A stretch of DNA of 50,544 bases from Alphaproteobacteria bacterium (GTDB taxonomy: Bacteria > Pseudomonadota > Alphaproteobacteria > Rhizobiales > OSC116), in assembly GCA_002400495.2 (NCBI GenBank), contig NVQL02000014.1, forward strand, positions 1,244 through 51,787, in the 5' to 3' direction. Shown in pieces: positions 3,679 through 43,895 of this stretch. A program made the translations under genes and the position numbers. The notes under the pieces were generated by a model that had not been told where the DNA came from, searched no databases, and saw only the letters and a list, made by a program, of their open reading frames with translations. The first letter of the stretch is position 1, and the number at the start of each line of letters is the position of its first letter.

Positions 3679-4650
3679 TTATTTGGTTGAAAGCCGTTGT
3701 TTAATTTGTGCAAATTGTTGCTGATCGGCGTTGAAAATATATTTTAAATCCGACACGCTGATATAATCAACTTGGCAAGATTTAAGATAATCAACAACCT
3801 CAAACACACGGCTTTTATCCGCCACCAAGGTCAATCTGTCGGCCTTATCGCCAAAGGGCAAAACACAACCCATATTATCAACCATATGCTTGATATTAGC
3901 GGCAGACAGGCCGTCTAACGCACAATTAATCTCTTGCTTCTGGCGGGCAGATTGCTCTGCTGCTGTCAGGTTGAGTAATTTTTCCAGCACCAATAACTGA
4001 TCATCATCCCAATCTGCCGTATATGACAATGTCAAATTGGCCTGAGAGCGCAAAATAACCCCGTCAGATAGAATTTTTAGATTATTGGCCGCAAGGGTCG
4101 AACCCGTCGATGTAATGTCGACAATCAGCTCAGCACTGCCCGCAGCAGGTGCGCCTTCTGTCGCGCCCGCGCTGGCCACCAACCGATAATTCTCAATGCC
4201 ATGATCAGCAAAAAAGTTAGCCGTCAGATTGTTATATTTAGTCGCAATGCGCAAACGCCGCCCATGATCATCACGGAAACGATTGGCAACTTCGTCCAAA
4301 TCTTGCATCACATTGACATCAATCCAACTTTGCGGCACGGCCACAATCACATTGGCATGACCAAACCCCAAAGGGTTAAGAATTTCAATCTTTTCATCAG
4401 CATTGAGGATGTTTTCGCGCAACAGGTCTTCACCCGTCACCCCCAAATGCACGTGGCCTTCATCTAACGCTTTAGCAATTTCAGAGGCGCTTAAAAACGC
4501 AATCTCAACATTATCTAAGCCTTCCAATGTGCCGCGATACCCGCGCGCGCCTTGGGTGCGTTTCAGTTTAAGCCCTAGTTTTTCAAAAAACGCTTGAGTA
4601 TTTTCTTGCAAGCGGCCTTTGCTTGGAATGGCAATGATTAAATTAGACAT
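3679..4650 (-). CDS. hisG: ATP phosphoribosyltransferase, catalytic subunit
   Basis: First committed step of histidine biosynthesis: ATP plus PRPP to phosphoribosyl-ATP. The protein has 323 residues and starts [16 protein letters not shown], with the family motifs [11 protein letters not shown] and the PRPP-binding stretch [18 protein letters not shown]. The start at 4650 follows GGGGAG with 7-base spacing; upstream in-frame codons lie in hisZ. It overlaps the 3' end of hisZ by 8 bases. The length exceeds the roughly 210-230 residues of classic short HisG, with an additional C-terminal ~100 residues, yet it is encoded with HisZ. Extended HisG of this sort is known from other alphaproteobacteria. 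Confidence 0.93.
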
Positions 4651-5812
4651 TTTTTGTCTCCCCTTCCAACAACTCAGCGAGGTGCGCATCCCACATCGAA
4701 GCACCAACCGCATTTATATGCTGCGCCGCGCCCAATTGTTTGGCCAACGTATCATAACGCCCACCACCAATAAGCGGCTTGTCGCTGCGGTCACCAAGGT
4801 CAATAATCTCAAACAACATGCCCGTATAATATTCAAACCCGCGCCCAAGCAGGCTGTTGAATAATATCTCATGCTTGGCAAAACCTTTAATGTTCAACGC
4901 GTCAATCGCATTAAACCGCGCCGCCAAAGCTTCAATTTGATCATCTAACCTAAGCTTATATTCTTGGTTCAACGTAGTTAGTCTTGCGAGACAGTCATCA
5001 GCTTTGCCACTGATGGCAAAAAATGCTTTGACGATTTGCAACGCTTCTTGCGGCAATTCAGGCGCGGCGGATAAAGCCGCTTGCTCCAAAAACCGCTCGG
5101 CAATTTCGCCCGCGCTGCGCCCGCCAATTAAGTCGATGCCGCTAAAGCTCAATACATTCTCAACCAGCATTTGCGCCGCATTCACCTCAAGCCCTTCAAT
5201 GGCGTTTAAAAACGCGGCACGTTCATTGTTAACGGGAGCCACTTGCGGCTTGGCCAATGCCTGCAGCAAATCATCCAGATTATTGTGCGATAAAAACAAG
5301 CGTTTTAGCTTTTTACGCCAAATGTCTGAAATGTTTAAATTATTCAGCAGGCTGAAAAACAATTCATAATCGCCCATTTGCAATTGCACATTTTTTATAC
5401 CCAGCTCGTCAATGGTCCGCAAAGCATATTCAATGGTTTCAATATCGGCTTTAAAACGATCTTCAGCCGCAAAAATCTCGATACCAGATTGAATGCTCTG
5501 TTTACACTGGTGCTGATCATCAGAGCGAAATACAGGCCCCGAATAAGCCAGCTTTGCAGGCTTTACCGTGCCACCAGCAAGGCTTCGAATATAATCTTTA
5601 GCTATGCATATGGTAAATTCTGGTCGCAGCACAAAATCTTGGCTGGCACTGGCATTCATCGCATTTTGCACCACATAAAGGCGGCGGCGCAAACCATCAC
5701 CCAACAAATCAAAATAAGCCGTAGCGCCCTGCACAATATCAGGATTGGCTTTTACATAACCTAAATCAGCACTTAATTTACTAATTTTTTCATTTACAGT
5801 ATTTTTTGTCAT
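4643..5812 (-). CDS. hisZ: ATP phosphoribosyltransferase regulatory subunit
   Basis: A HisRS-like paralogue that lacks aminoacylation and instead assembles with HisG and transmits histidine feedback. It has 389 residues and keeps the class II fold remnants: [16 protein letters not shown] for motif 1/2, [15 protein letters not shown], and the late motifs [14 protein letters not shown] and [15 protein letters not shown]. It sits between hisS and hisG (46 bases after hisS, 8-base overlap with hisG), an arrangement frequent in alphaproteobacteria. An AGGG sequence precedes the ATG. The missing canonical motif 2 (RxE, QFxQ) separates it from hisS. Confidence 0.92.
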
Positions 5813-5858
5813 TTTATGACCCTTTATATCTACATTGAACTTGAATTTTTAAAAAGTT

Positions 5859-7364
5859 TCAATGTTGATGATGGGGTTTGGCTAAAATTTCTTGTATTTT
5901 ACTGACTAAATCAGCAGATTTTATAGTTATTTGCGCCACTTGGCTAGTGCGCCATTCTTCGTTATCAGTAATGTCTTTTGAGGCTTTTGAACCGACAACT
6001 AAATCCTTAATGGTAATCTCATCATTGGCGCGTTCATCTTCACCTTGAATGACCACCAACGGCGCGCCGCGTTTGTCGGCATATTTTACCTGCGCCTTCA
6101 TACCGCTGCTGCCCATGTAAACTTCGGCTCTTATGCCCGCTTGGCGTAAATCCATCGCCATTTGTTGGTATGTCGCCCGCTCAGATTTATCCATCACCGT
6201 GATGATCACCGGCGCACGCACGCTTGCCGCTTTATGTTTACCCAATTTATCGAGCGCAGCATATAATCTGCTCACCCCGATAGATATACCCGTTGCAGGT
6301 ATCTCAATGCCCTTAAAACGTGCCACAAGCCCGTCATAACGGCCGCCACCACCCACAGAGCCAAAGCGCACTAAATTGCCCTTCTCGTCTTTAATTTCAA
6401 AGGTCAGTTCGGCTTCCATCACGGGGCCAGAATAATAACCAAGCCCGCGCACAATAGACGGGTCAAAACAAATCCGATCTTCCGCATAGCCTGCAGCCGA
6501 AGTCAAAACATCAATTTCGGCCAACTCAGCAATACCCGCTTCACCAATTTCACTGCCAGCAATCAATTCGGCCAACGCCGTCAATGTGGCTTTGTTAGTG
6601 TCTTTACCCGCTTCAACAAAAGCAATCACCTTGTCGATCGATGCCGCATCAAGTTGCGCACCTTTGGTGTAATCGCCACTTTCATCTTTGCGGCCTTCGC
6701 CGAGCAACAGCCTCACGCCATCACTGCCCAAACGGTCTAATTTATCCATCGCCCGCATCACAGTCAGGCGGGTCGCGGCCGAAGCTTCATCATCACCCAG
6801 CAAATTGATTTTATCCAACACACCATCAAGAATTTTCCGATTATTCATCCGAATGACATAATCACCACGCGCAATGTCGAGCTTTTCCATCACGTCCGAC
6901 CACATCATCGCCAATTCGGCATCTGCCGCCATTTCGGCGCTGCCAATCGTATCGGCATCAAATTGCACAAATTGTCTAAATCGCCCAGGGCCAGGTTTTT
7001 CGTTACGCCATACCGTGCCTGTTTGATAACGCCGAAACGGCTTGGCCAACGCGTCATAATTTTCAGCCACAAACCGTGCGGTCGGCGCGGTCAGGTCATA
7101 CCGTAATGACATCCACTGCTCGTCATCATCTTGCAACGCAAACACCCCTTCATTGGGGCGGTCGGCATCAGGCAAAAATTTACCCAAACATTCAGCAAAT
7201 TCTAAGGCAGGAGTTTCAAGCGGCTCAAAACCGTATAATTCATACACTTCGCCAATGGTTTTAATCATCGCGGCCATCGTGCGCACTTCATGAGCATTCA
7301 CATCACCAAAGCCACGCGGTAGTCTTGCTTTAGGGCGAAATGTTTTTTGTTTTTTCTTACTCAT
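5859..7364 (-). CDS. hisS: Histidine--tRNA ligase (alphaproteobacterial type)
   Basis: Histidyl-tRNA synthetase, 501 residues, class II. Visible are RGFGD near residue 17, motif 2 at about 114-136 ([20 protein letters not shown]), the histidine-binding region at 304-317 ([14 protein letters not shown]) and GGGGRYDGL at 338-346, followed by the anticodon-binding domain. Two normally strict positions differ from the common bacterial form: RHE is RNE in motif 2 and RGLDYY is RGLGYY. These changes match the divergent HisRS of alphaproteobacteria whose tRNA-His lacks the extra G at -1. It is the first gene of hisS-hisZ-hisG and lies 73 bases downstream of tadC. Confidence 0.95.
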
Positions 7365-30946: not shown

Positions 30947-31025
30947 CAAATATGATGCGACCAATTCTTAATTGCGGACGGTTACACCAATAAACTAGTC
31001 AATTTTAAACAGAATGGATTATATC

Positions 31026-32276
31026 ATGAAAAAATTTACCATCGCAGCCGCTCTTGCAGCGACTCTATTTTCGACAACAGCCATCGCTGCCGCGCCAAGC
31101 ACCGAAGATGTTCTAGCAACTTATGCCAACATCGCACATGCAGGTTATGAAGATAGCCTCAGCACAGCAAAAGCTTTGCAAGCTGCCATTGCGACACTTG
31201 TTGCGACACCAACTGAAGACAGTCTAAGCGCTGCAAAAGCCGCTTGGTTGGCTGCTCGCGCCCCTTACCAACAAACCGAAGCTTACCGGTTCGGTAACGC
31301 CATCGTTGATGATTTTGAAGGCTTGGTAAATGCATGGCCACTAGATGAAGGCCTGATCGATTATGTCGACGCTTCATATGGTACAGAATCTGACGAAAAC
31401 CCATATTACACCGCAAATGTCATTGCCAACCCAAAACTAAACGTTGCGGGCACGATGGTTGATGCCAGCAAAATCACTAAAGAATTGCTTGCTGATACAT
31501 TGCAAGAAGCTGATGAAGTCGGCTCAAACGTAGCCACTGGTTATCATGCCATCGAATTTTTGCTTTGGGGTCAAGATTTAAACGGCACCGGCCCAGGCGC
31601 TGGTACTCGTGCTGCAACAGATTATGACACCGCAAATTGCACCAATGGCAATTGCGACCGTCGTGCAGAATATATCACAGCCGCAACAGATTTACTTATT
31701 GATGATCTAGAAGGCATTGTTGGCGCTTGGTCAATGAGCGGCGAAGCCCGTGCAGCATTAGCTGATGGCGGCGTTGCAGCCATCTTCTCTGGCCTAGGTT
31801 CACTTTCATATGGCGAACTAGCTGGCGAACGCATCAAGCTTGGCCTCATTGTGCATGACCCAGAAGAAGAGCATGATTGCTTCTCTGACAACACGCATAA
31901 TTCACATTATTATGACATTTTGGGCATTCAAAATGTTTACACAGGTAGCTATACCCGTGTTGACGGTTCAGTGGTCGAAGGCCCATCAATCGAAGATTTG
32001 CTAGCGGATAAAGACGCCGCTGTTGCCAAAGAGCTAACGGATAACATTGCTGCCACAGTGGCTGCGGGTGCCGCCATGGTCAAACGTGCCGAAACCATCG
32101 AAGCTTACGACCAAATGATTGGTGAAGGCAACACAGAAGGCAATGCAGTTGTGCAAGCCGTTGTTGATGGCCTTGTAACCCAAACTAAATCACTCGAAAA
32201 AGCTGTAAGCGCGCTTGGCCTTTCTGGCATCGAGTTCGAAGGTTCAGACAGCTTGGATGCTCCTGAAAAAGTATAA
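31026..32276 (+). CDS. Imelysin family periplasmic protein (IrpA-like)
   Basis: A 416-residue exported protein of the imelysin (M75) family. A signal peptide (MKKFTIAAALAATLFSTTAIA-A) precedes two helical imelysin-like bundles. The family motif GxHxxE is intact at 172-177 (GYHAIE), inside TGYHAIEFLLWGQDLNGTG. Later motifs are ELAGERIKLGLIVHDPEEEHDCFSDNTH split over 270-300 and NVYTGSY. Imelysin proteins are iron-regulated and thought to bind metal rather than cleave peptides. It begins a four-gene plus-strand operon with a di-haem protein, a second imelysin-like protein and a DUF1513 protein. Confidence 0.92.
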   Translation: MKKFTIAAALAATLFSTTAIAAAPSTEDVLATYANIAHAGYEDSLSTAKALQAAIATLVATPTEDSLSAAKAAWLAARAPYQQTEAYRFGNAIVDDFEGLVNAWPLDEGLIDYVDASYGTESDENPYYTANVIANPKLNVAGTMVDASKITKELLADTLQEADEVGSNVATGYHAIEFLLWGQDLNGTGPGAGTRAATDYDTANCTNGNCDRRAEYITAATDLLIDDLEGIVGAWSMSGEARAALADGGVAAIFSGLGSLSYGELAGERIKLGLIVHDPEEEHDCFSDNTHNSHYYDILGIQNVYTGSYTRVDGSVVEGPSIEDLLADKDAAVAKELTDNIAATVAAGAAMVKRAETIEAYDQMIGEGNTEGNAVVQAVVDGLVTQTKSLEKAVSALGLSGIEFEGSDSLDAPEKV

Positions 32277-32293
32277 CTGATTGATTTCAGTTT

Positions 32294-32309
32294 AGGCAGG
32301 CAACTGCCT
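32294..32309 (+). other. Small hairpin between imelysin and di-haem genes
   Basis: AGGCAG-GCAA-CTGCCT forms a 6-bp stem with a four-base loop, 18 bases after the imelysin stop. No T-run follows, so it is more likely an mRNA-processing or stability element than a terminator. Confidence 0.45.
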
Positions 32310-32374
32310 TAAAATTCGTGTTCAAATGCATTGTGGGGGTGCGTTTGGGCACGAACTCGTTTATACGGTGTGCT

Positions 32375-33853
32375 ATGTTTAGATTGATCGCCATTTTTTT
32401 ACTATTTTCCACCAGCCCCGCTGTTTCGGATGAGCTGACCAAGCGCCAACGCCTATTATTGCCAACAACCGATTTTTCCCAACCAGAAAAACGAGAGCAT
32501 TATCCAGGCGGCACAACTGGTAAATTTGTTAAATTAGACAGAGACTCATTGTCTCATCCAACCAAATCATTAGGCATAAATGGCGATATGGATTACGCCA
32601 TCGGCCGCGCCATGTTTAAAAAATTATGGGCACCCGCACCCGCCGCCACCCAAGCCTCCAACGGCCTAGGCCCACTATATAACGCCCGCTCATGCTTAAG
32701 TTGCCACATTAAAAATGGCCGTGGCCATGTGCCTGATATTGGTTTTCCCAACGAAGATGCCAACAGCATGCTCATCCGCCTATCAATCAAACCACAAACC
32801 GACCAACAGCGCCAAGATTTAGCATCTGGTGTGGCAAAAACAATCAATGAACCAATCTATGGCGGGCAATTGCAAGACATTGGCGCATCAGGCTTTGCCC
32901 CCGAAGGCAGAATATCGGTAAAATGGACATATACCAATGTCTCCCTGGCCGATGGTACGGTGGTAGAACTCCGCCAACCAGATTTTAAAATCAACAACCT
33001 AGCCTATGGCAATATGCATAAAGATGTAATGACCTCACCCCGCATCGCCACCCAAATGATCGGCATGGGCTTGATTGACGCCATCGACAGCACCGCAATT
33101 TTAGCCCACGCCGATCCAGACGATAAAGATGGCGACGGCATCTCAGGCAAAGCCAATATGGTCTGGGACATCGCGGCGGATAAATTAGCTTTAGGCCGTT
33201 TCGGCTGGAAGGCAGGCCAACCCAATTTACGCCAACAAGTCGCCTCCGCTTTCTCGGGCGATGTTGGCATCAGCAACCCTCTATTCCCCAACGGTTCGGG
33301 CGATTGCACCATAAACCAAACCGAATGCTTAACCGCCCCCAATGGCAACACCGCACGTATGGGCGGATTTGAATTATCCGCAGAATTGCTAAATTTAACC
33401 ACCTATTTCAACGCCAACTTGGCCGTGCCACACCGTCAGAATGCCGCCAATGACAATATATTACGCGGCAAGCAAATATTTTATCAAGCCGGCTGTATTT
33501 CGTGCCACATGCCCAAACACATCACCTCCGATAAATCGCAGTATAAAGACCTGCATAACGAGCTAATCTGGCCATATTCAGATTTTCTATTACACGATAT
33601 GGGCACAGGTTTAGCCGACAACAGACCCGAAGGCCAAGCCACAGGCAGTGAATGGCGCACCCCACCATTATGGGCATTAGGAGCATCTAAATATCTAGGC
33701 AAACATTGGCAATTATTGCATGATGGCCGCGCCCGTACTATACAAGAGGCCGTACTTTGGCATGATGGTGAAGCGCTTGGCGCAAAAAGCAAATTTTTAA
33801 ACCTTTCGGCGACCGAGCGTCAAGCTTTGGTCGATTTCGTGCAATCGCTTTAG
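32375..33853 (+). CDS. Di-haem oxidoreductase family protein (DUF1111)
   Basis: A 492-residue periplasmic c-type cytochrome of the di-haem thiol-oxidoreductase/DHOR family. A signal peptide ends near VSD-EL. Two haem-binding CxxCH motifs are visible: CLSCH at 107-111 and CISCH at 374-378, the second followed by a distal-ligand-type HDMGTGLAD segment. DPDDKDGDGISGKANMV and WRTPPLWALG are family hallmarks. The start at 32375 (MFRLIAIFLLF) gives a clean signal peptide; the frame is open 57 bases further upstream. The gene lies between two imelysin-type genes, a conserved proteobacterial neighbourhood. The substrate is unknown. Confidence 0.9.
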   Translation: MFRLIAIFLLFSTSPAVSDELTKRQRLLLPTTDFSQPEKREHYPGGTTGKFVKLDRDSLSHPTKSLGINGDMDYAIGRAMFKKLWAPAPAATQASNGLGPLYNARSCLSCHIKNGRGHVPDIGFPNEDANSMLIRLSIKPQTDQQRQDLASGVAKTINEPIYGGQLQDIGASGFAPEGRISVKWTYTNVSLADGTVVELRQPDFKINNLAYGNMHKDVMTSPRIATQMIGMGLIDAIDSTAILAHADPDDKDGDGISGKANMVWDIAADKLALGRFGWKAGQPNLRQQVASAFSGDVGISNPLFPNGSGDCTINQTECLTAPNGNTARMGGFELSAELLNLTTYFNANLAVPHRQNAANDNILRGKQIFYQAGCISCHMPKHITSDKSQYKDLHNELIWPYSDFLLHDMGTGLADNRPEGQATGSEWRTPPLWALGASKYLGKHWQLLHDGRARTIQEAVLWHDGEALGAKSKFLNLSATERQALVDFVQSL

Positions 33854-33863
33854 GAGTGACAAG

Positions 33864-34946
33864 ATGAAATTATTATTTAAAATGTCCATCGGTTTTTGCC
33901 TACTATTTTCAGCAGCCCATGCTGATGACGCCTTAACCCAAAAAGTGCATCAAAAATTCATCGATGATTATATTGTGCTGCATTTAAACAATTTCAAGCG
34001 TGCGGCCACCTCACTAGATGCCACCGTAACAAAGGCCTGCACAGTCGGTAGTGACGTAGTATGGCAAAAAGTCAAAACCCAATATGCCAAGACAGCTCTT
34101 ACGTGGATGCCATTGCAATCCATGCGGTTTGGCGCGTTCGAGAAAAACAGCCGAGATTTACGCATTTATTTCTGGCCCAATAGCCGCGGCGAAAAACAAG
34201 CGGGTAAATTTCTAGCCAAAATGGACATGAGTAAATTAGAACCAAGCTATTTTCACAACATAAGCGTCGCCTTGCAAGGCCTGCCCATCATCGAATGGCT
34301 GCTCTATCACCCCGACAGCACATTAGCTGCCAATGATGCCGCGCTCAAACAATATACCTGCCAATATTTTCAAGCCATCACGCTCAACCTACAAACCGTT
34401 AATGATGAGCTAATCGCCGAATTCAGCCAAGGCGGCGCGATGCGTGAAGCTTTGCTCACCCCATCCGACACCAACGATTTTTACGGCAGCTTGCCAGAAG
34501 TGACTTTGCAGCTTTACAAAAACATCCACGCCATGGTCGAATTGGTCAATGGCCAAAAATTAAGCCGCCCGATCGCCAAAGAGTATAAATTCTTAAAACC
34601 CAAACGCTTAGAAATGTGGCGCTCAGGCCAAAGCAAAGCCAATCTACTCGCCAATATCAGTAATATTTATCAAGCCTATTTAATTTACAGCCCCTTGGTG
34701 CAAGCAGGCCAAGCCGACCAGCAAATTGATCAACAAGTGCGCGCAAATTTCGAGCAAACTTTGGCACAAATAGCCGCATTGCCCGATGATTTTTACGCCG
34801 CCTTTAACGGCGAAAAACGCGCCGAAACATGGCAACAAGGCCGCGATTTAATCGCCCAAATCGTCATTTTGCGCACCATATTGGGCGATAAGGTAACCGC
34901 GGCTCTAGACATTCCACTCGGCTTTAATTCATTAGATGGTGATTAA
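33864..34946 (+). CDS. Imelysin-like family protein, second copy
   Basis: A 360-residue exported protein (signal peptide MKLLFKMSIGFCLLFSAAHA-D) with the imelysin fold. The position of GxHxxE reads GLPIIE (139-144): glycine and glutamate are kept, histidine is proline. This GLPxxE variant characterises a second imelysin clade often encoded beside di-haem proteins. Other conserved blocks are LTWMPLQSMRFG and DLRIYFWPN. GGAG precedes the start, 10 bases after the previous stop. It overlaps the next gene by 11 bases. Probably a periplasmic metal-binding protein with a different ligand set from the first imelysin. Confidence 0.88.
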   Translation: MKLLFKMSIGFCLLFSAAHADDALTQKVHQKFIDDYIVLHLNNFKRAATSLDATVTKACTVGSDVVWQKVKTQYAKTALTWMPLQSMRFGAFEKNSRDLRIYFWPNSRGEKQAGKFLAKMDMSKLEPSYFHNISVALQGLPIIEWLLYHPDSTLAANDAALKQYTCQYFQAITLNLQTVNDELIAEFSQGGAMREALLTPSDTNDFYGSLPEVTLQLYKNIHAMVELVNGQKLSRPIAKEYKFLKPKRLEMWRSGQSKANLLANISNIYQAYLIYSPLVQAGQADQQIDQQVRANFEQTLAQIAALPDDFYAAFNGEKRAETWQQGRDLIAQIVILRTILGDKVTAALDIPLGFNSLDGD

Positions 34947-36072
34947 TGTGAAACTTTCACGCCGTATATTGCTAAAATCAGCCGCAGCACAAGCATTATT
35001 ATTGCCCGCGCTAAGCGCCCCAGCATGGGCGGCACAGGCCGATATACTACAAAATTACCTACTATGCGCCAAAAATGCCGAAGGCGAATATGTGGCGGTA
35101 AAAATCACCGAAGATGGTCAGATAAAGCAGCAATTCACTTTGGCCGATAGAGGCCACGGCCACGCCAAAAGCCCAACAGGCGGCTTAGCCATTTTCGCCC
35201 GCAGACCCAATAATCAACTCTATTTAATCGATGAAACGGGCAAAATGCGCCTATTATACGCTCCCGAAGATCGCCACTTTTTCGGCCACGGCGTATTTTC
35301 GCCCGATGGCAAATTATTATATACATCCGAGAATGATTTTGACAATGAGGATTACGAAGCCACAGGAGTCATCGGCATTTGGGATGTCAAACACGGTAAA
35401 AAGATTGGCGAATTTTCATCAGCAGGCATTGGCGTGCATCAAATCATGCTGATGGCCGATGGCGAAACATTGGTCATCGCCAATGGCGGCATTCTCACTC
35501 ATCCAGATCATCCACGCCAAAAACTAAATTTGGCCGATATGCAGCCCAATTTGGCCTTCGTAAACCGCAAAAACGGCCAACTAATCAGCAAAGTTAACTT
35601 GCCCGCCGAGCTACACCAACTGTCCATCCGCCACATTGACATCACCACAAGAGGCTTGGCCGCCATTGCCATGCAATATCAAGGCGGTTTGGCCGAAGAC
35701 GTGCCGCTTATCGCCACGGTCGGCCAAACCCAGCCGCTTAAATTTGTGCAAGCGCCGCAAAACCTAATCAAACGTCATAAACAATATGTCGGTTCTATTT
35801 GTTTCGATAAGAGCGGGAAGTTTTTTGCTGCCAGTTCACCACGTGGCAATATTGTTAGTTTTTATACCAAAACTGGCCAATTTTTAAGCCTATATGCGAT
35901 GAATGACGTCTGTGCAGTGGCCGCTGCACCCGCTCCATATCAGTTCATTCTGGCCTCAGGAATGGGCGAAATTGACCTTTATGACCTAGGCCAAAAAACC
36001 GCCATAAGCCTACACACCCAATCTGCTAAAACCGAACTATACCAATGGGACAACCACATGTTGGCGCTATAA
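34936..36072 (+). CDS. DUF1513 domain-containing Tat-exported beta-propeller protein
   Basis: A 378-residue protein with a twin-arginine signal (LSRRILLKSAAAQALLLP, cleavage near AWA-AQ), then repeated propeller-like blades such as GHGVFSPDGKLLYTSENDFD and RGLAAIAMQYQGGLAEDVPL. It matches DUF1513 proteins that accompany imelysin and di-haem genes. The Tat signal suggests folding, perhaps with a cofactor, before export. The ATG at 34936 is used here; a GTG at 34948 would place the RR motif nearer the N-terminus and is possible. It closes the operon. Confidence 0.88.
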   Translation: MVINVKLSRRILLKSAAAQALLLPALSAPAWAAQADILQNYLLCAKNAEGEYVAVKITEDGQIKQQFTLADRGHGHAKSPTGGLAIFARRPNNQLYLIDETGKMRLLYAPEDRHFFGHGVFSPDGKLLYTSENDFDNEDYEATGVIGIWDVKHGKKIGEFSSAGIGVHQIMLMADGETLVIANGGILTHPDHPRQKLNLADMQPNLAFVNRKNGQLISKVNLPAELHQLSIRHIDITTRGLAAIAMQYQGGLAEDVPLIATVGQTQPLKFVQAPQNLIKRHKQYVGSICFDKSGKFFAASSPRGNIVSFYTKTGQFLSLYAMNDVCAVAAAPAPYQFILASGMGEIDLYDLGQKTAISLHTQSAKTELYQWDNHMLAL

Positions 36073-36639: not shown

Positions 36640-39600
36640 ATGCCGATTATAAATGAAGATTTTATCGCCACTTTGGATGATCGTAAATTATACGATCACA
36701 AAAAATATAGCGATAGCTGCGGCGTTGGTTTTATCACCCATAAAAAATCCATCCAGACTCATGATATTTTGGTCAAAACCCACGAAGCATTATGCACCAT
36801 TCCGCATAGGGGCGGCATGTCTGCCGAAGGCATTGGCGATGGCGCAGGTGTGAATTTCGATCTATCTGAGCGGTTTTTTAGAGTTGTAACCAACAATGAA
36901 AATCTTGAGCTTGGCCAATTTGGCGTGGCCAATTTCTTTTTGCCTAAACAAGAAGAATTCGAAGAAGACGCTGTCACTTTGGTTGAAGAAAAACTACGCG
37001 CTCACCGCATGCCAATCATTGCATGGCGCGATGTACCAGTGAATAACAGCATTCTAAGTGACGCATCAGTGCGTGCTCAACTAAGCATTAAACAGGTTAT
37101 TTTTGGCCGTCCTCAAAAATTGGCCGATGCCACTTGGCATGAATTTGATTTGGAAATTGCCCGCTGCTTAGCCGATATTGAAGATGATTGCTATGACATT
37201 GCTGAGCTAGATGGTTTTTACCCCTGCTCAATGAGCGCCCGCACCCAAGTGCTGAAAGGCCGTCTCAATTCCAACGAAGTGATCCCATATTTCGAAGATT
37301 TGCGTGACCCCGATCATGAGATTCATTCAATCTTCTTCCACACGCGTTTCTCGACCAATACCGAGCCTGCCACCATGATGGCACAGCCGTTCCGCCGCAT
37401 GGCGCATAATGGCGAGCTAAATACCGATAAGAAAAACCGCTTGTCAGAAGCTTCAATCGCCAAGCAACAAGGCAAAACCATACATTTCCCCAAAGGCCAA
37501 TCGGACAGCGCTCGGCTCGACCAAACCATTGCCCGCCGCATCCTTGATGACGGCTTCACTGTGGTCGAAGCCATTGTTGCCATGATGCCGCCAGCATGGG
37601 AAAACCTGCCAGATCTTGACCCAGATGTCAGAGCCATGCTCGAATATTTCAGCTTGTTCGAAGAAAAAAACGACGGCCCCGCCGCGATTATTTTTGGCAA
37701 TGGCCAATTTATCGGCGCGCGCCTAGATCGCTTGGGTCTGCGCCCCTTGCGCAGTGTCGAAACTGAAGATTATTTAGCGGTTATGTCCGAAGCCGGACAA
37801 ATAAATTTCGCCGCCGAAACGATTCTAAAACGTGGCCGTATTGAAGCGGGCGATATGCTGTTTTGGAGCCATATTGAAGGCCGTTCATATACAGGCGAGC
37901 AATATCTAGAAAAACTCAGCAAGCGAGAAGATTATGCAGCACTTTTAGCCGCTGCAAAAATTGACATTGAAGACATTGCTGATGCCGACGAAACGGCGTT
38001 AACGGGCCTCGAAGGCTTAAGCGTCGACCAAGCTCACATTGCTTATTACATGAATGATGAAAGCTTCAGATTTCTACTCGACCCCATGCTCGAAAAAGGC
38101 GCAGAACGCGTCTATGCCATGGGCTATGGCCTCACACCCAATGCGTTAACCCGCACCGAAGGCGGCATGAGTCAATATTTCAGCCAACGTTTCGCGCAAG
38201 TCACCAACCCGCCGCTCGATTCAATTCGTGAATCCGATGGAATGACTTTACGCGTGGCTTTGGGCGGCAAGCCAGGTTTTGTGCAAGATCAGCGGCAAAT
38301 TGTCATTCAATCGCCCATTCTTTTACAACAAGATTTTGCTAAAATCTGTCAGCAAGACGCAGTGGCAACCCGCATCATCGACATCCTATATACCCCCAAT
38401 TACGCCGATGAATCGCTCAACGCCCATGCCTTGGAAGATGCGCTTGCTGATTTGCGTGACGAGGTTGAAGACGCCGCACGGGATAATGTTGGCATCATCA
38501 TTTTAAGCGACCGTAAATTATCGGCTAATCAAGCCGCGATCCCTCTCTTACTGGCAATCGCCACAGCCAACCAACGCTTAATCCGCACAGGCTTGCGTTT
38601 CAATTCTAGCCTGATTGCCGACAGTGGCCAGTTGGCGTCGACCCATGATGTCGCAACCGCCTTAGGCTTTGGCGCGGCAGCCATTTTTGCCATCACCGCG
38701 CAGCATCGCGCCGAACAAATGGACGCAGGCAATGCCAACGCTTTGATGAAGAATTTCAAAAAATCAATCGAGAAATCATTGATGAAAACCATGGGCAAAT
38801 TTGGCCTGTGCACCGCCGAAAGCTATATTGGCGGCGAGTTTTTCGAATCTAGCTTCCTAGACACCAAAGAGCCGCATCTAAAACACTTTTTTCCTAAAAT
38901 TGACGCCCCTGTTGGCGGCGTGCATTTTGCAGACATTGCCACATCAGCGGCCGAATGGCACCATAAAGCCCGCGAACTAGGCGACGATGCAAATGTGCCA
39001 AACCTCGGCCTATTTAAAGAACGCGGCGATGGTGGCGGCCATAGTTTTGGCATCACCTCGGTGCGCGAATATGGCCATATGATCAAAGAAGAAATCACCT
39101 ATATTGAGCAAGATGAGCCCAAACACTTACGTTTGCTTGGCGATGAAGGCGATAACTTTGCCTATAAAGATTTTGGTTATGAAGCCCGTACACCCGCGCA
39201 AATTGACGCTCATAAAATCACCAAAGCTTACATTCAATTCTCTAGCGAAATGACCAAAGAACGCCAAGCGCGTCCCGCCACATTGCGTGATGTGATGGCT
39301 TTGCCTGTCGATGTAACACACGCCCAAACCACAGCTGAATTTGATGCCATTTTGGGCAGCCAGCACATTAAAGGCAACTTAAATTATTACATCCGCGGTC
39401 TAAACGTAAAATGCCAAAGTGTTGGCATCTATCACATTTCATTTGCCGATAATGACAATTCAAGAGACCGTCTCAAACAATTGGCTTCGCATTACAAAAC
39501 CCGTTTTCCATCCGCTGATTATAAAATCACCGTTGAGGATGATCATTTGTCGGTCGCAGCCGCACATGCATTCTTACATTATCTAAGCCATATCGAGACG

Positions 39601-42147
39601 GCGCACAGCGCAATAGGGCTTGATGAGGTGCAACCTGCTCACGAAATTACGCGCTACTTCTCCTCAGGCGCAATGAGTTATGGTGCCCTTGTCAAGCCTG
39701 CCCATCGGGCGGTTGCACAAGGCACAAATATTGTCGGCGGCCTGTCCAACTCCGGCGAGGGCGGTGAAGAATTCGCCCGTTCAAACTCTATTTTAGCCAG
39801 CCGCATTCGCCAATTTGCCTCGGGCCGTTTTGGCGTGTGGGCAGGCTATCTGGCCGACCCCTTACTAGAAGAAGTTGAAATTAAAATCGCCCAAGGCGCA
39901 AAACCAGGCGAGGGCGGGCAATTACCAGCCAAAAAAGTCACCGTCGAAATGGCCGCCATGCGTGGCGGCACACCGGGAGTCGAACTTGTCTCACCCCCGC
40001 CGCATCACGACACTTATTCGATCGAAGATTTGGCCCAGCTCATCCATGATTGCAAAGCCACCCGTCGCCGGGTGATTGTGAAATTGGTTTCATCCGAAGG
40101 CATTGGCACCATCGCGGTTGGCGTGGCCAAAGCCGGCGCTGATGTGATCAACATTGCTGGCGGCACAGGCGGCACAGGTGCCGCGCAAGTGACCAGTCTC
40201 AAACATACAGGCCGCGCAGCCGAAATCGGCATTGCCGAAGTACATCAAGCCTTAGCTGCCAACGGCCTGCGTGACAAAGTGATTTTGCGCACATCAGGCG
40301 CGCATCAAATTGGTGTCGATGTCGTAAAATCGGCCATATTGGGCGCTGATAGCTTTGAATTTGGCACAGCAGCTCTGATGATGCTCGGCTGTGTGCAAGC
40401 CAAAACCTGCAACATTAAATGCCCTGTTGGCCTCACCACCAATCCCGAAGTCTACGATGGTGATGCCCGTATCTTGGCACAATATTATATGAATCTCGCC
40501 CACGAAGTGCGCTTGGTTCTAGCCGATATTGGTTTTGCTTCTTTGGCCGAAATTCGCGGACGTACCGATCTATTGCATTTGGTAGATCATGACAAAATGG
40601 TCGGCGCGTTAGACTTACGCGGCCTGCTCAAAACCGTGCAAGAAGTCAAAATCGATGAGCCAATTTATCTTGAAGCCGAATTCCGCCATGATGACAAGAG
40701 CTTTGATCTGGTGAAAGAAAAAATCTTCTCAGGCGAAATGGCTGAACTTGTGCTTGAAGGCAAAAAATACACTCTCAATAACCGCCATAAAACTGTCGGC
40801 GGCCAACTAGCCATCGACATTGAGCGTGCATTAAATTACGAGCTTTCAGACAAACAACGCGGCAAAATTAAATCTCTCTATCAAGGCCATAATGGCCGCT
40901 ACCATCTTGGTGAAAACACCGTAAAAATCAAAACCACTGGCTCAGCAGGCCAAAGCTATGGCGCATTCTGCATTGTTGGCATGAATATGAGCCATGAAGG
41001 CACCTGTAATGATGGCGTCGGCAAAGGCCTCAGTGGCGGCACAATCGCGGTTAAAGTGCCGCAAAATGATGGCGTTAAAGCAGGCGTGCAAAACACTTTA
41101 ATCGGTAACTTTGCCCTATTTGGCGCAGTTGGCGGCATGCTATTTGTGCAAGGCGAGGCGGGCGATCGTTTCGCGGTGCGTAACTCGGGCGCAATGAGCG
41201 TGGTCGAAGGCGTTGGCGATTTCGCCTGCGAATATATGATCAATGGCTCAGTGCTAAACATTGGTACATTTGGCAAAGGTTTTGCCAACGGCATGTCAGG
41301 CGGCAACGCGTACCAATATGATCCCGAGCAAAAATTTGACCATCTTTATGATGCCTCATCAGTGCGTTATGGCTATCTGAACGATGGCTCAGACGAAGCA
41401 TTGGCACATGAGCCTTTCATCAAATATATGTTAGAACAACATGTAGACGCCACAGGCAGCCTAATCGCACAAAAATTACTCGATAATTGGGCGCAAGAAA
41501 AACAGCATTTTGTCTACATGCAACCTCTAGCTCTAGAGCAAACCCAAAGCAGCGAACATTTGCAAACATTGGGTCGCAAGGTTTTGGCTGATGAATTGGC
41601 CCATGCCATGGCCGAATATCAAATCAAACCTTTGCGTGAGGCATTTGCCAAAGGCGAGGCGGTCTTATCTGGCCAAGTGCCCGCCAACCAAGAGGTTGAT
41701 TCAACATTAAGTTTTGAATTGCTCAACGCCTATGGCGTGCTGCGCATTGCCAAACAGGTCGTGCATAGCCTTGCCAAAAAACAAGGCATTGATGTCAACC
41801 CGATTTTCGAGGTCAAAGCCGCCAAAAACTTGGTCAAAACCGAGGATTATGCCCTCATTGAAGCCCTGTCCAAAGAATGCAAAAAAGCCCTTGAGAAATT
41901 TAGCGAGCAAGAGCTTGCCATTATGTTGGCCGATAAACGCATCAAGGATTACAAAAAAAGCTTGATTTTGCGTGATGTTCAATCTATTTACTCGCTAGGA
42001 TCAACGGCTTGGATTATGTCGCAAGACCGCCTAAACCGTGAAAAAATGGGACATATCCCTGATTTTAGAGAAACACTTGCTGAGCAATTGGTTAAAACCG
42101 TGCTCAAAGCCAACCAAGCGGCTCACCAGCTAGCTGCGGCTGAATAA
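36640..42147 (+). CDS. gltB: Glutamate synthase large subunit, extended form
   Basis: Glutamate synthase (GOGAT) of 1835 residues, about 300 longer than usual GltB. A propeptide of ~26 residues precedes C27 (DSCGVGFI), the N-terminal nucleophile of a class II glutaminase; HNGELNT and FHTRFSTNTEPATMMAQPFR support an active glutaminase. The central domain includes SQRFAQVTNPPLDSIR (about 510-530). A ~100-residue insertion (about 890-990) precedes the FMN domain, which begins near 1003 (ITRYFSSGAMSYGAL). The 3Fe-4S cysteines are C1251, C1257 and C1261. The GXGXG beta-helix domain runs to about 1580 and an extra helical tail covers about 1630-1835. GAAAGG precedes the ATG. No gltD follows; a diflavin reductase does. 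Confidence 0.93.
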   Translation: MPIINEDFIATLDDRKLYDHKKYSDSCGVGFITHKKSIQTHDILVKTHEALCTIPHRGGMSAEGIGDGAGVNFDLSERFFRVVTNNENLELGQFGVANFFLPKQEEFEEDAVTLVEEKLRAHRMPIIAWRDVPVNNSILSDASVRAQLSIKQVIFGRPQKLADATWHEFDLEIARCLADIEDDCYDIAELDGFYPCSMSARTQVLKGRLNSNEVIPYFEDLRDPDHEIHSIFFHTRFSTNTEPATMMAQPFRRMAHNGELNTDKKNRLSEASIAKQQGKTIHFPKGQSDSARLDQTIARRILDDGFTVVEAIVAMMPPAWENLPDLDPDVRAMLEYFSLFEEKNDGPAAIIFGNGQFIGARLDRLGLRPLRSVETEDYLAVMSEAGQINFAAETILKRGRIEAGDMLFWSHIEGRSYTGEQYLEKLSKREDYAALLAAAKIDIEDIADADETALTGLEGLSVDQAHIAYYMNDESFRFLLDPMLEKGAERVYAMGYGLTPNALTRTEGGMSQYFSQRFAQVTNPPLDSIRESDGMTLRVALGGKPGFVQDQRQIVIQSPILLQQDFAKICQQDAVATRIIDILYTPNYADESLNAHALEDALADLRDEVEDAARDNVGIIILSDRKLSANQAAIPLLLAIATANQRLIRTGLRFNSSLIADSGQLASTHDVATALGFGAAAIFAITAQHRAEQMDAGNANALMKNFKKSIEKSLMKTMGKFGLCTAESYIGGEFFESSFLDTKEPHLKHFFPKIDAPVGGVHFADIATSAAEWHHKARELGDDANVPNLGLFKERGDGGGHSFGITSVREYGHMIKEEITYIEQDEPKHLRLLGDEGDNFAYKDFGYEARTPAQIDAHKITKAYIQFSSEMTKERQARPATLRDVMALPVDVTHAQTTAEFDAILGSQHIKGNLNYYIRGLNVKCQSVGIYHISFADNDNSRDRLKQLASHYKTRFPSADYKITVEDDHLSVAAAHAFLHYLSHIETAHSAIGLDEVQPAHEITRYFSSGAMSYGALVKPAHRAVAQGTNIVGGLSNSGEGGEEFARSNSILASRIRQFASGRFGVWAGYLADPLLEEVEIKIAQGAKPGEGGQLPAKKVTVEMAAMRGGTPGVELVSPPPHHDTYSIEDLAQLIHDCKATRRRVIVKLVSSEGIGTIAVGVAKAGADVINIAGGTGGTGAAQVTSLKHTGRAAEIGIAEVHQALAANGLRDKVILRTSGAHQIGVDVVKSAILGADSFEFGTAALMMLGCVQAKTCNIKCPVGLTTNPEVYDGDARILAQYYMNLAHEVRLVLADIGFASLAEIRGRTDLLHLVDHDKMVGALDLRGLLKTVQEVKIDEPIYLEAEFRHDDKSFDLVKEKIFSGEMAELVLEGKKYTLNNRHKTVGGQLAIDIERALNYELSDKQRGKIKSLYQGHNGRYHLGENTVKIKTTGSAGQSYGAFCIVGMNMSHEGTCNDGVGKGLSGGTIAVKVPQNDGVKAGVQNTLIGNFALFGAVGGMLFVQGEAGDRFAVRNSGAMSVVEGVGDFACEYMINGSVLNIGTFGKGFANGMSGGNAYQYDPEQKFDHLYDASSVRYGYLNDGSDEALAHEPFIKYMLEQHVDATGSLIAQKLLDNWAQEKQHFVYMQPLALEQTQSSEHLQTLGRKVLADELAHAMAEYQIKPLREAFAKGEAVLSGQVPANQEVDSTLSFELLNAYGVLRIAKQVVHSLAKKQGIDVNPIFEVKAAKNLVKTEDYALIEALSKECKKALEKFSEQELAIMLADKRIKDYKKSLILRDVQSIYSLGSTAWIMSQDRLNREKMGHIPDFRETLAEQLVKTVLKANQAAHQLAAAE

Positions 42148-42158
42148 TAAGGTTATAT

Positions 42159-43895
42159 ATGTCTGATAACAATAACGATCTGCCGTTTAACGAAGATCAA
42201 CAACAATGGCTGAGCGGTTTTTTTGCAGGTGCCAACACCCGACTTTTGCAAGCTGGTGGTGATGCTGCGGCCGCAAATACGCGCCCCCTAACCATTTTAT
42301 TTGGCACCCAAACTGGAAATGCCGAAAGCATTGGCGAAGGCATAGTGTCTATAGCAGGCGACTATGGCCTAACTGCCACATTGCTAGATATGGATGACAT
42401 CGAAATTGAGGATTTGCCCAAAATTGAGCGTTTGCTCATCATCTGCTCAACCTATGGCGAAGGCGATATGCCTGACAATGCCGAAATATTGTGGGAAGCC
42501 TTAACCGAAGATGACGCACCACGCCTAGAAAACATGAATTTCAGTGTGCTGGCTTTGGGCGATAAATCCTATGATGACTATTGCAAAGCAGGCATCGATT
42601 GGGACGAAAGACTGGCCGAATTAGGCGCCACCCGCGTGGCTGACCGTGTTGATTGCGATGTAGATTTCGAAACAGACGCCGACAAATGGTGCATATCAGC
42701 TTTAGACGGCATTAAAGACACAGGTTCTGCCCCCGAAGCGGGCGCTGCCCCTGCTGCCGCACCAAAATCTGCGGCCAAAGACAAGCCAGAATTCGACCGT
42801 AAAAACCCATTCCCTGCAAGCGTTTTGGTCAATAAAGTCATCTCAGGCGAAAACTCAAGCAAACAAATTGTTCATTATGAGATCAGCCTCAAAGGCAGTG
42901 GCCTAAACTATGAAGCAGGCGATGCGCTTAACATCGTGCCGCAAAATGACCCAGAACTTGTGAAGCTAGTCCTCGCTCATTTGGGCTTAAGCGGTGACGA
43001 ACAAATTAATGGCGAAAAACTATCCGCCGCTCTAAAAACCACCTATGACATTAAATTGCCAACAGGCCCATTTTTAGACGCTGTCGCCAAAAAATCTGGC
43101 GATGAAGAGCTGGCAAGAATGCTTGAGAATAACGACAGAGAAGCCCTAAACAGCTATCTTTGGGGCCGTGATGTGATTGACTTCATCATCGATATGAAAG
43201 TCACTTTCGGCGCTGATGAATTTACCGACTTGCTACGCAAATTACAACCACGCGCCTATTCAATTTCCAGCTCAGCCAAAGCCCATGAAGACGAAGTACA
43301 TCTAACCATCAGCTCCGTGCGTTATGACAGTTTTGAGCGCAAACATGAAGGCGTGGCATCCTGCTATTTGGCCGACCGTGTTGGCGAAAATGACAAAGTC
43401 GGCGTCTATTTCAGCCCCAATAAAGCCTTCCGCGTGCCACAAGATACCGACAAACCCATCATCATGGTTGGCCCAGGCACAGGCATAGCACCGTTCCGCG
43501 CATTCTTAGAAGAACGCCAAGCCACAGGCGCCAAAGGCGACAACTGGCTATTCTTTGGCGACAGAAAAGCCGCAGATGATTATATCTACAAAGACGAAAT
43601 TGAAGCGTGGCAAAAATCTGGCGTTTTAACCAAGCTCGACCTTGCCTTCAGCCGCGACCAAAAAGACAAAATTTACGTGCAAACCCGCATGAAACAAAAC
43701 GGCGCCGAGTTATTCAAATGGCTCGAAAACGGCGCTTATTTCTACGTATGCGGCGACGCAACCTACATGGCCAAAGACGTTGACCAAACCCTGCAAGACA
43801 TCATTGCCGAACACGGCAAGCACGACGAAGCTGGCGTCAAGGCATATATGAACAACCTCAAAAAATCGAAACGCTACGTCCGCGACGTCTATTAA
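42159..43895 (+). CDS. NADPH-dependent diflavin reductase, CysJ-like
   Basis: A 578-residue diflavin reductase resembling the sulfite reductase flavoprotein subunit. The flavodoxin (FMN) domain at about 44-195 has ILFGTQTGNAES, STYGEGDMPDNA and LALGDKSYDDYC. An Ala/Pro linker (about 197-212) leads to the FAD domain, with RAYSISSS at 365-372 and GVASCYLADR, then the NADP domain with GPGTGIAPFRAFLEE from 438 and YVCGDATYMAKDV, ending RYVRDVY like CysJ. No cysI or other sulfite reductase gene is in the window. It starts 11 bases after gltB with AAGG as ribosome site, in the place normally held by gltD. I infer it donates electrons to this GltB; sulfite reduction in trans is the alternative. Confidence 0.9.
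   Translation: MSDNNNDLPFNEDQQQWLSGFFAGANTRLLQAGGDAAAANTRPLTILFGTQTGNAESIGEGIVSIAGDYGLTATLLDMDDIEIEDLPKIERLLIICSTYGEGDMPDNAEILWEALTEDDAPRLENMNFSVLALGDKSYDDYCKAGIDWDERLAELGATRVADRVDCDVDFETDADKWCISALDGIKDTGSAPEAGAAPAAAPKSAAKDKPEFDRKNPFPASVLVNKVISGENSSKQIVHYEISLKGSGLNYEAGDALNIVPQNDPELVKLVLAHLGLSGDEQINGEKLSAALKTTYDIKLPTGPFLDAVAKKSGDEELARMLENNDREALNSYLWGRDVIDFIIDMKVTFGADEFTDLLRKLQPRAYSISSSAKAHEDEVHLTISSVRYDSFERKHEGVASCYLADRVGENDKVGVYFSPNKAFRVPQDTDKPIIMVGPGTGIAPFRAFLEERQATGAKGDNWLFFGDRKAADDYIYKDEIEAWQKSGVLTKLDLAFSRDQKDKIYVQTRMKQNGAELFKWLENGAYFYVCGDATYMAKDVDQTLQDIIAEHGKHDEAGVKAYMNNLKKSKRYVRDVY

What the first reader, a model, noticed from the sequence alone, without database searches (positions are those of the whole stretch)
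36640..43895. Glutamate synthase paired with a CysJ-like diflavin reductase in place of GltD
Seen: a 1835-residue GltB is followed 11 bp later, same strand, by a complete FMN-FAD-NADPH diflavin reductase. There is no GltD, cysI or ferredoxin gene in the window. Known: bacterial GltB takes electrons from GltD (NADPH, FAD, two 4Fe-4S clusters) or, in the plant type, from ferredoxin. Inference: the diflavin protein is the electron donor, making an NADPH:diflavin:glutamate synthase with a domain order not described for this enzyme. The large-subunit insertions and altered cluster loop fit a changed docking partner.
Basis: partly seen in the sequence, partly recalled or inferred. Interest (0 to 1): 0.82.

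Follow-up and report, generated by a model that had tools for sequence, protein, structure and literature searches.

The report
Glutamate synthase with diflavin partner
A long glutamate synthase gene in this bacterium sits beside a sulfite-reductase-like flavoprotein gene, and the same pair stays together across distant bacteria, many of which lack the usual partner GltD; the flavoprotein is therefore likely the enzyme's electron supply, which would be a third way, apparently undescribed, to power a central step of nitrogen assimilation.

Summary
The 1835-aa GltB belongs to a sharply separate long class (cluster loop C-x5-C-x3-C, a lost 10-residue loop, a helical C-terminal extension of 187 aa). 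In 74 of 75 relatives with room downstream, a CysJ-like diflavin reductase follows on the same strand; no CysI lies in those loci. Across 32 diverse loci these two genes are the only widely conserved neighbours. GltD was found in none of 28 distinct genomes whose only GltB is long, a complete Pantoea agglomerans among them, but in 33 of 34 tested genomes with a canonical GltB. The window's genome has one GltB, no GltD (only a PreT beside PreA) and a separate CysI cluster. GltB-partner and CysI-partner diflavins lie on two sides of one branch, and the pair seems to move together between classes and phyla. Best reading: NADPH-FAD-FMN of the diflavin to [3Fe-4S] to FMN of GltB, a new electron-donor variant of glutamate synthase. 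Proof with purified proteins is missing.

The parts
36640..42147 (+). long-class glutamate synthase large subunit (GltB), 1835 aa; predicted acceptor of electrons from the diflavin protein
   Evidence: ORF; Pfam; NCBIfam PRK11750 1045.9 bits, just under its cut-off of 1047; PDB GltS relatives
36718..37938 (+). glutaminase (class II amidotransferase) domain, residues 27-433; nucleophile Cys27 after a 26-aa propeptide-like stretch
   Evidence: Pfam; Cys27 invariant in 22 long + 8 canonical rows; CGVGF near the N-terminus in 87 of 89 long sequences
37468..37512 (+). site of the 10-residue deletion relative to canonical GltB (E. coli 263-272)
   Evidence: loop length 35 in 88 of 89 long sequences (1 not parsed), 44-45 in 7 of 7 canonical
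38038..38850 (+). central domain (Glu_syn_central), including conserved Met494-Gly495
   Evidence: Pfam; AMG[YF]G in 89 of 89 long sequences
39091..39591 (+). class-specific insertions (residues 818-858 and 888-984)
   Evidence: alignment; second insert predicted as alpha/beta, mostly pLDDT 86-92
39556..40536 (+). FMN-binding synthase domain, residues 973-1299
40390..40422 (+). [3Fe-4S] cysteine loop C1251-x5-C1257-x3-C1261, one residue shorter than in canonical GltB
40867..41385 (+). GXGXG beta-helix domain
   Evidence: Pfam
41584..42144 (+). class-specific C-terminal helical domain, residues 1649-1835
   Evidence: absent from canonical GltB; AF2 pLDDT 87.4 for 1620-1835; no PDB match at E<=0.001
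42149..42152 (+). AAGG, possible ribosome-binding site of the diflavin gene
   Evidence: sequence
42159..43895 (+). CysJ-like NADPH-FAD-FMN diflavin reductase, 578 aa; predicted electron donor of GltB
   Evidence: TIGR01931 634.6 bits, under its cut-off of 668.15; PRK06214 443.7, over its cut-off of 432; E. coli CysJ structures
42294..42677 (+). flavodoxin-like FMN domain of the diflavin
   Evidence: Pfam
42789..43784 (+). FAD and NADPH domains of the diflavin, with SRD-x3-4-K[IV]YVQ and GPGTG[IV]APFR
   Evidence: Pfam; motifs in 95 and 93 of the 96 diflavins taken by score to the window's own

Best explanation
The two adjacent genes likely encode one glutamate synthase in which a CysJ-like diflavin reductase would replace GltD as the NADPH-oxidising electron donor. 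Predicted path: NADPH reduces FAD, FAD reduces FMN in the diflavin protein, FMN passes electrons one at a time to the [3Fe-4S] cluster of GltB, and that cluster reduces the GltB FMN, which turns 2-iminoglutarate (from 2-oxoglutarate and the ammonia released from glutamine) into glutamate. Shown: intact domains and active-site residues, conserved pairing, no GltD found where this is the only GltB, and a diflavin lineage distinct from CysI-partnered CysJ. Inferred: physical contact, electron transfer, NADPH specificity, and that the class-specific inserts or C-terminal helical domain form the dock.
For: Pairing: of 80 long-GltB loci, 5 end within 0.9 kb; of the other 75, 74 have the diflavin downstream on the same strand, 69 of them within 242 bp; no CysI in any of the 80, sought with ten CysI queries. 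The 9 long-class plasmid records among the 40 listed of 253 are also the 9 best diflavin hits, at adjoining coordinates. Neighbourhood control: in 32 diverse loci both genes are present in all (31 and 29 in the clustering, the misses L101, L135, L137 being ORF-filter losses seen intact); the next family recurs in 10. GltD: in 33 of 34 tested genomes with a canonical GltB (miss: G136, 78% complete; one of the 33, G045, is the source of the query) and 0 of 28 distinct long-only genomes, Fisher p 8e-17, relatedness not corrected. Order sample: 145 of 150 genomes have a GltB; 9 carry the long class, 8 of them as the only GltB. Trees: 44 GltB-partner and 9 CysI-partner diflavins on two sides of one branch, SH-aLRT 98; long GltB 44 against canonical 7, 100; distances correlate 0.96, maximum of 2000 permutations 0.21. 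A 13-row clade mixing Pantoea, Tsukamurella, Ketogulonicigenium and Rhizobiaceae recurs in both trees. Three further genomes of a phylum sample have the pair. G001 of the same genus lacks GltB and diflavin but keeps a CysI 98% identical to the window genome's.
Against: No biochemical, transcript or complex-structure data. G001 is 94% complete, and because the two genes are adjacent one assembly gap could hide both. In the window's own genome no other CysJ was found beside CysI, so the diflavin might also serve CysI. One locus (L056) has a long GltB and no diflavin within 9 kb; in Crenothrix (L055) a canonical gltBD lies between the two; in four loci (L030, L032, L040, L051) one or two other genes do. 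Genomes with both systems exist (G080 and 8 of 27). The diflavin is CysJ-like (39% to E. coli CysJ), and NCBIfam would name it sulfite reductase subunit alpha. Tree correlation partly reflects shared species history, and the 80 loci are mostly methanotrophs (51 ranked Methylococcales).
Confidence: 0.85

Rival explanations
1. The diflavin protein is simply the flavoprotein (CysJ) of assimilatory sulfite reductase, and its place beside GltB is incidental.
For: It is CysJ-like by sequence (TIGR01931 634.6 bits, PRK06214 over its cut-off), and the genome has a CysI-like gene at L087:8521-10299 with no CysJ beside it and no other close diflavin.
Against: No CysI in the 80 loci; congener G001 keeps CysI but has no diflavin match at all (94% complete); G071, G080 and G088 carry a second, different diflavin right beside CysI; separate branch in the tree.
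Confidence: 0.06
2. GltB takes electrons from a soluble ferredoxin or flavodoxin, and the diflavin serves as NADPH:ferredoxin reductase upstream or has another acceptor.
For: GltB without GltD resembles ferredoxin-dependent GltS in subunit make-up, and a diflavin could reduce small carriers (inference, no call).
Against: A stretch of 28 residues in the Synechocystis enzyme (911-938 of chain 1llw) faces only 5 residues here (its role as ferredoxin loop is recalled). No family of 110 aa or more besides the pair recurs in more than 10 of 32 neighbourhoods (smaller proteins were not clustered). The diflavin has its own FMN domain.
Confidence: 0.06
3. The pair works together, but on another reaction: a glutamate-synthase-like enzyme with a different 2-oxo acid or amide substrate.
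For: Separate lineage and class-specific domains.
Against: 261 alignment columns are identical across 22 long and 8 canonical rows, covering the Cys nucleophile, synthase motifs and the three cluster cysteines. It is the only GltB found in 28 genomes, where a glutamate synthase would be expected.
Confidence: 0.06
4. A normal GltD encoded elsewhere in the genome pairs with this GltB.
For: The window's assembly is 91.6% complete, so one gene could be missing.
Against: 0 of 28 distinct long-only genomes have one, including 97-99% complete assemblies with no match at all (G065, G071) and a Pantoea agglomerans titled complete, with only a partial match.
Confidence: 0.01

Closest known systems
Bacterial NADPH-dependent glutamate synthase GltBD (alpha-beta)
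   Same: Large subunit domains, Cys nucleophile, synthase motifs, three cluster cysteines, NADPH as the likely ultimate donor
   Different: No GltD (FAD plus two [4Fe-4S]); a diflavin protein instead; cluster loop one residue shorter, a 10-residue loop lost, inserts and a C-terminal helical domain
Ferredoxin-dependent glutamate synthase (plants, photosynthetic bacteria)
   Same: GltB-type catalytic subunit without GltD
   Different: Dedicated adjacent NADPH diflavin gene; 1llw residues 911-938 face only 5 residues here
Assimilatory sulfite reductase flavoprotein CysJ
   Same: FMN-FAD-NADPH domain order, 39% identity to E. coli CysJ, C-terminal RDVY
   Different: Partner gene is GltB, not CysI; separate branch; shorter N-terminal part than E. 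coli CysJ
Eukaryotic single-chain NADH-GltS
   Same: Reduced nicotinamide-driven GltS
   Different: There GltD is fused to GltB (PMC8097209); here no GltD, and no fusion among the hits listed

Membership tests
Glutamate synthase large subunit (GltB/GltS alpha) | class II amidotransferase, central, FMN synthase and GXGXG domains in order | tested here: met
   Pfam
Glutamate synthase large subunit (GltB/GltS alpha) | N-terminal Cys nucleophile and three [3Fe-4S] cysteines | tested here: met
   invariant in 22 long + 8 canonical rows; loop spacing differs, x3 in 89 of 89
Glutamate synthase large subunit (GltB/GltS alpha) | glutamine + 2-oxoglutarate to two glutamate | not testable with these tools
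   needs enzyme assay
NADPH-GltS GltBD holoenzyme | GltD small subunit with two [4Fe-4S] clusters | tested here: not met
   none found in own genome (91.6% complete) or in 28 distinct long-only genomes, own included
Ferredoxin-dependent GltS | ferredoxin-loop insertion in the synthase domain (role recalled) | tested here: not met
   1llw residues 911-938 face only 5 residues between two aligned stretches
Assimilatory NADPH sulfite reductase (CysJI) | flavoprotein encoded with the CysI hemoprotein | tested here: not met
   no CysI in the window or the 80 loci; own CysI lies on another contig
CysJ flavoprotein | NCBIfam equivalog cut-off TIGR01931 | tested here: not met
   634.6 against 668.15 bits; PRK06214 is met, 443.7 against 432
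Diflavin reductase superfamily (CysJ/CPR type) | FMN flavodoxin, FAD and NADPH domains in one chain | tested here: met
   Pfam; PDB relatives
GltB-diflavin pair (proposed here) | direct electron transfer from diflavin to GltB | not testable with these tools
   needs purified proteins

The most novel reading that the evidence does not exclude
A third electron-delivery class of glutamate synthase, NADPH-FAD-FMN-[3Fe-4S]-FMN without any [4Fe-4S] cluster, is widespread in Proteobacteria and reaches Actinomycetota, moves between phyla as a two-gene cassette, and is the sole glutamate synthase of many bacteria such as Pantoea agglomerans and Methylomonas species; its C-terminal helical domain or inserts serve as the diflavin dock, and dropping two [4Fe-4S] clusters would save iron and reduce oxygen sensitivity.
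Probability: 0.6. Interest if true: 0.82.

Novelty: new variant of a known kind. Interest (0 to 1): 0.74.

Why it matters
Glutamate synthase is a central enzyme of nitrogen assimilation, and the 2021 review read here (PMC8097209, section 6.1, part 1 of 2) lists GltD-dependent, ferredoxin-dependent and GltD-fused forms, with separate-domain ORFs in Archaea. A diflavin-driven form would add a donor class with a different cofactor chain, explain how many bacteria manage without GltD, correct annotations that call the partner sulfite reductase, and offer a natural case of partner exchange in a multi-centre redox enzyme. It is directly testable with two proteins.

Tried and rejected
GltD elsewhere: the single Fer4_20 protein (G000:C37) is PreT-like, followed by a DHO_dh/Fer4_21 (PreA-like) gene and, further on, aminotransferase, M20 hydrolase and amidohydrolase genes, so not GltD.

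Iron-uptake link: an imelysin, di-haem oxidoreductase, imelysin, DUF1513 cluster lies just upstream in the window, but members of it recur in only 3 of 32 loci, all of the window's genus. Dropped as a general link.

Fusion of GltB and diflavin as a Rosetta stone: none among 20 hits of the C-terminal region (1822-1854 aa) or the 120 listed of 7624 hits (1812-1845 aa); the unlisted hits were not seen, and canonical GltB may be among them.

Promoters and terminators: 17 and 16 found against 11.5 and 12.1 in shuffles, nothing that helps. Rfam: no match in the window. Complex prediction was not on offer.

CysI search mended: the first test for CysI in the 80 loci used only E. coli CysI on ORFs of 250 aa or more and did not flag the CysI of G001 (L182), so I repeated it with ten CysI queries: still none in the 80 loci, the window, 4 plasmid loci, 9 loci of genus and order, or 3 of the phylum sample, while the positive controls L087, L174, L175 and L182 were found. 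On rechecking I also saw that the G001 argument is weaker than first put (one assembly gap could hide both genes), and moved the main confidence from 0.86 to 0.85 and the sulfite-reductase rival from 0.05 to 0.06.

Literature: searched the open PMC subset only; no title or abstract start listed described such a pair. Seen: passages of PMC9045290 and PMC8097209 and one section part of the latter; other papers as listings only.

Phylum-wide frequency: the single-sequence search with the C-terminal extension found 4 of 299 genomes, a lower bound only.
Full report
WHAT IS THERE. The window carries an 1835-aa GltB at 36640-42147 and, 11 bp downstream on the same strand, a 578-aa diflavin reductase at 42159-43895. 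Pfam gives all four glutamate synthase domains and the flavodoxin, FAD and NAD(P) domains. NCBIfam places GltB a hair under the cut-off of PRK11750 (1045.9 against 1047), the flavoprotein under TIGR01931 cysJ (634.6 against 668.15) but over PRK06214 'sulfite reductase subunit alpha' (443.7 against 432). The nearest solved structures by sequence are GltS large subunits and sulfite reductase flavoproteins.

PAIRING. One genome-contig scan gave 80 loci of the long class, the best 80 of 494 matching stretches; 51 of the 80 are ranked Methylococcales, 9 Hyphomicrobiales, 3 Enterobacterales, 2 Alteromonadales, the rest otherwise or unranked, so they are not independent. Five end within 0.9 kb of the GltB stop (L006, L043, L049, L063, L065; L043 shows the start of a diflavin). 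Of the remaining 75, 74 have the diflavin downstream on the same strand: 69 within 242 bp (starts taken as the longest ORF), four at 604-1455 bp behind one or two extra genes, and Crenothrix L055 at 6872 bp behind a canonical gltBD. L056 has none within 9 kb. No CysI was found in the 80 loci with ten CysI queries. In the plasmid collection, 9 of the 40 listed of 253 matching records carry the long class (50.9-54.2% identity over 98-99%; the next listed has 34.8%), and the nine best diflavin hits are the same nine records at adjoining coordinates, one of them Tsukamurella, an actinomycete. As a control I clustered the proteins of 110 aa or more around 32 diverse loci: GltB in 31, the diflavin in 29, an ABC ATPase family in 10, everything else in 4 or fewer. 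The missing ones (L101, L135, L137) were ORF-filter losses: both genes were read intact there.

GltD IS NOT FOUND WHERE THE LONG GltB IS ALONE. In an even sample of 150 genomes of the same order, 145 have a GltB: the long class is in 9, and in 8 of these it is the only one. In the genus, 5 of 6 genomes have only the long one (in G002 a contig-end fragment) and G001 has none. A true GltD from the order (L143, from G045) was sought in 37 genomes: 24 of 25 chosen canonical-only genomes (of 136; G045 itself among them) have it at 60% identity or more (miss: G136, 78% complete), G080 with both systems has it (72%), and none of the 10 long-only genomes has it (best full-length 30-32% paralogues; no match at all in G002, G065, G071). 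In 27 further genomes behind the loci, 19 have only the long GltB, among them a Pantoea agglomerans titled complete, Methylomonas fluvii and Methylobacter luteus, and 8 have both. GltD is found in 8 of 8 of the latter (40-74% identity) and 0 of 19 of the former (one, G447, has a 30% paralogue; the others partial matches or none; completeness of these 27 is not given). G433 and G005 are the same genome by identical coordinates, so the totals are 33 of 34 against 0 of 28 (Fisher p 8e-17, relatedness not corrected).

NOT SIMPLY THE SULFITE REDUCTASE FLAVOPROTEIN. The own genome has a CysI-like gene between a siroheme-synthase-like gene with a DUF2849-like ORF and DUF934-like and CysH-like ORFs, with no diflavin beside it (CysI domains, the other names are read from the sequence). 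G001, same genus, keeps a CysI 98% identical to it but has neither GltB nor any diflavin match. G001 is 94% complete, and since the two genes are neighbours a single assembly gap could hide both, so this is suggestive only. The diflavin occurs at over 50% identity in the 10 long-class genomes with a complete locus; among the other 27 genomes the best full-length match is 41%. G071, G080 and G088 carry a second diflavin right beside CysI. In the diflavin tree, 44 GltB partners and 9 CysI partners lie on two sides of one branch (quick search, SH-aLRT 98). A double role for the diflavin in the window's genus is not excluded.

CO-INHERITANCE. Long GltB is separated from canonical GltB with support 100; distances in the two trees correlate at 0.96 over 44 pairs (maximum of 2000 permutations 0.21), and 29 of 41 splits are shared. 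Shared species history inflates this, but non-taxonomic groupings recur in both trees: Pantoea, Tsukamurella, Ketogulonicigenium and Rhizobiaceae together (13 rows, 100 and 91), and the window's genus with two MAGs labelled Methylophaga and Proteobacteria (100 and 100; MAG labels may be wrong). The pair has therefore probably been transferred as a unit. Three further genomes found through the C-terminal extension in a phylum sample (4 of 299 positive, own genome included) also have the diflavin next door. Names among the 120 listed of 7624 hits include Agrobacterium, Shinella, Methylobacillus, Enterobacter and Pantoea.

MECHANISM. [quoted passage not shown] Here the predicted chain is NADPH to FAD to FMN of the diflavin, then [3Fe-4S], then FMN, then 2-iminoglutarate. 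The diflavin keeps an NADPH-type motif in 95 of 96 sequences (its meaning is recalled). Contact and electron flow are inferred.

NOVELTY. The review part read describes GltD-dependent, ferredoxin-dependent and eukaryotic fused forms and separate-domain ORFs in Archaea. Ten searches of open PMC papers listed no description of a diflavin partner; subscription papers were not searched. Annotations seen call the two genes 'glutamate synthase-related protein' or 'glutamate synthase large subunit' and 'sulfite reductase subunit alpha' or 'sulfite reductase flavoprotein'. I therefore class it as a new variant of glutamate synthase.

Noticed in passing
L055:9878-24066: Crenothrix sp. D3 has long GltB, then a canonical GltB and GltD, then the diflavin: both systems interleaved in one locus.
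   Followed up: partly
L030, L032, L040, L051, between GltB and diflavin: One or two extra ORFs separate the pair; by eye they look like an Mrr-type nuclease domain protein and a PemK/MazF-like protein (not scanned against a library).
   Followed up: no
L056:9962-24479: The only long GltB locus with room but without a diflavin; an ORF that by eye looks like a transposase lies just downstream, which suggests loss.
   Followed up: no
window 31014-36072: Imelysin, di-haem oxidoreductase, imelysin, DUF1513 cluster (probable iron uptake) immediately upstream; members recur in only 3 of 32 loci.
   Followed up: partly
G001 (same genus): 94% complete genome in which no GltB of either class and no GltD was found; how it assimilates ammonium was not examined.
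   Followed up: no
L198:13029-15994: In G208 the tail of a canonical GltB and a GltD lie directly beside the long GltB and diflavin.
   Followed up: no
window 3679-7364: ATP phosphoribosyltransferase beside two histidyl-tRNA-synthetase-like ORFs, possibly one of them HisZ.
   Followed up: no
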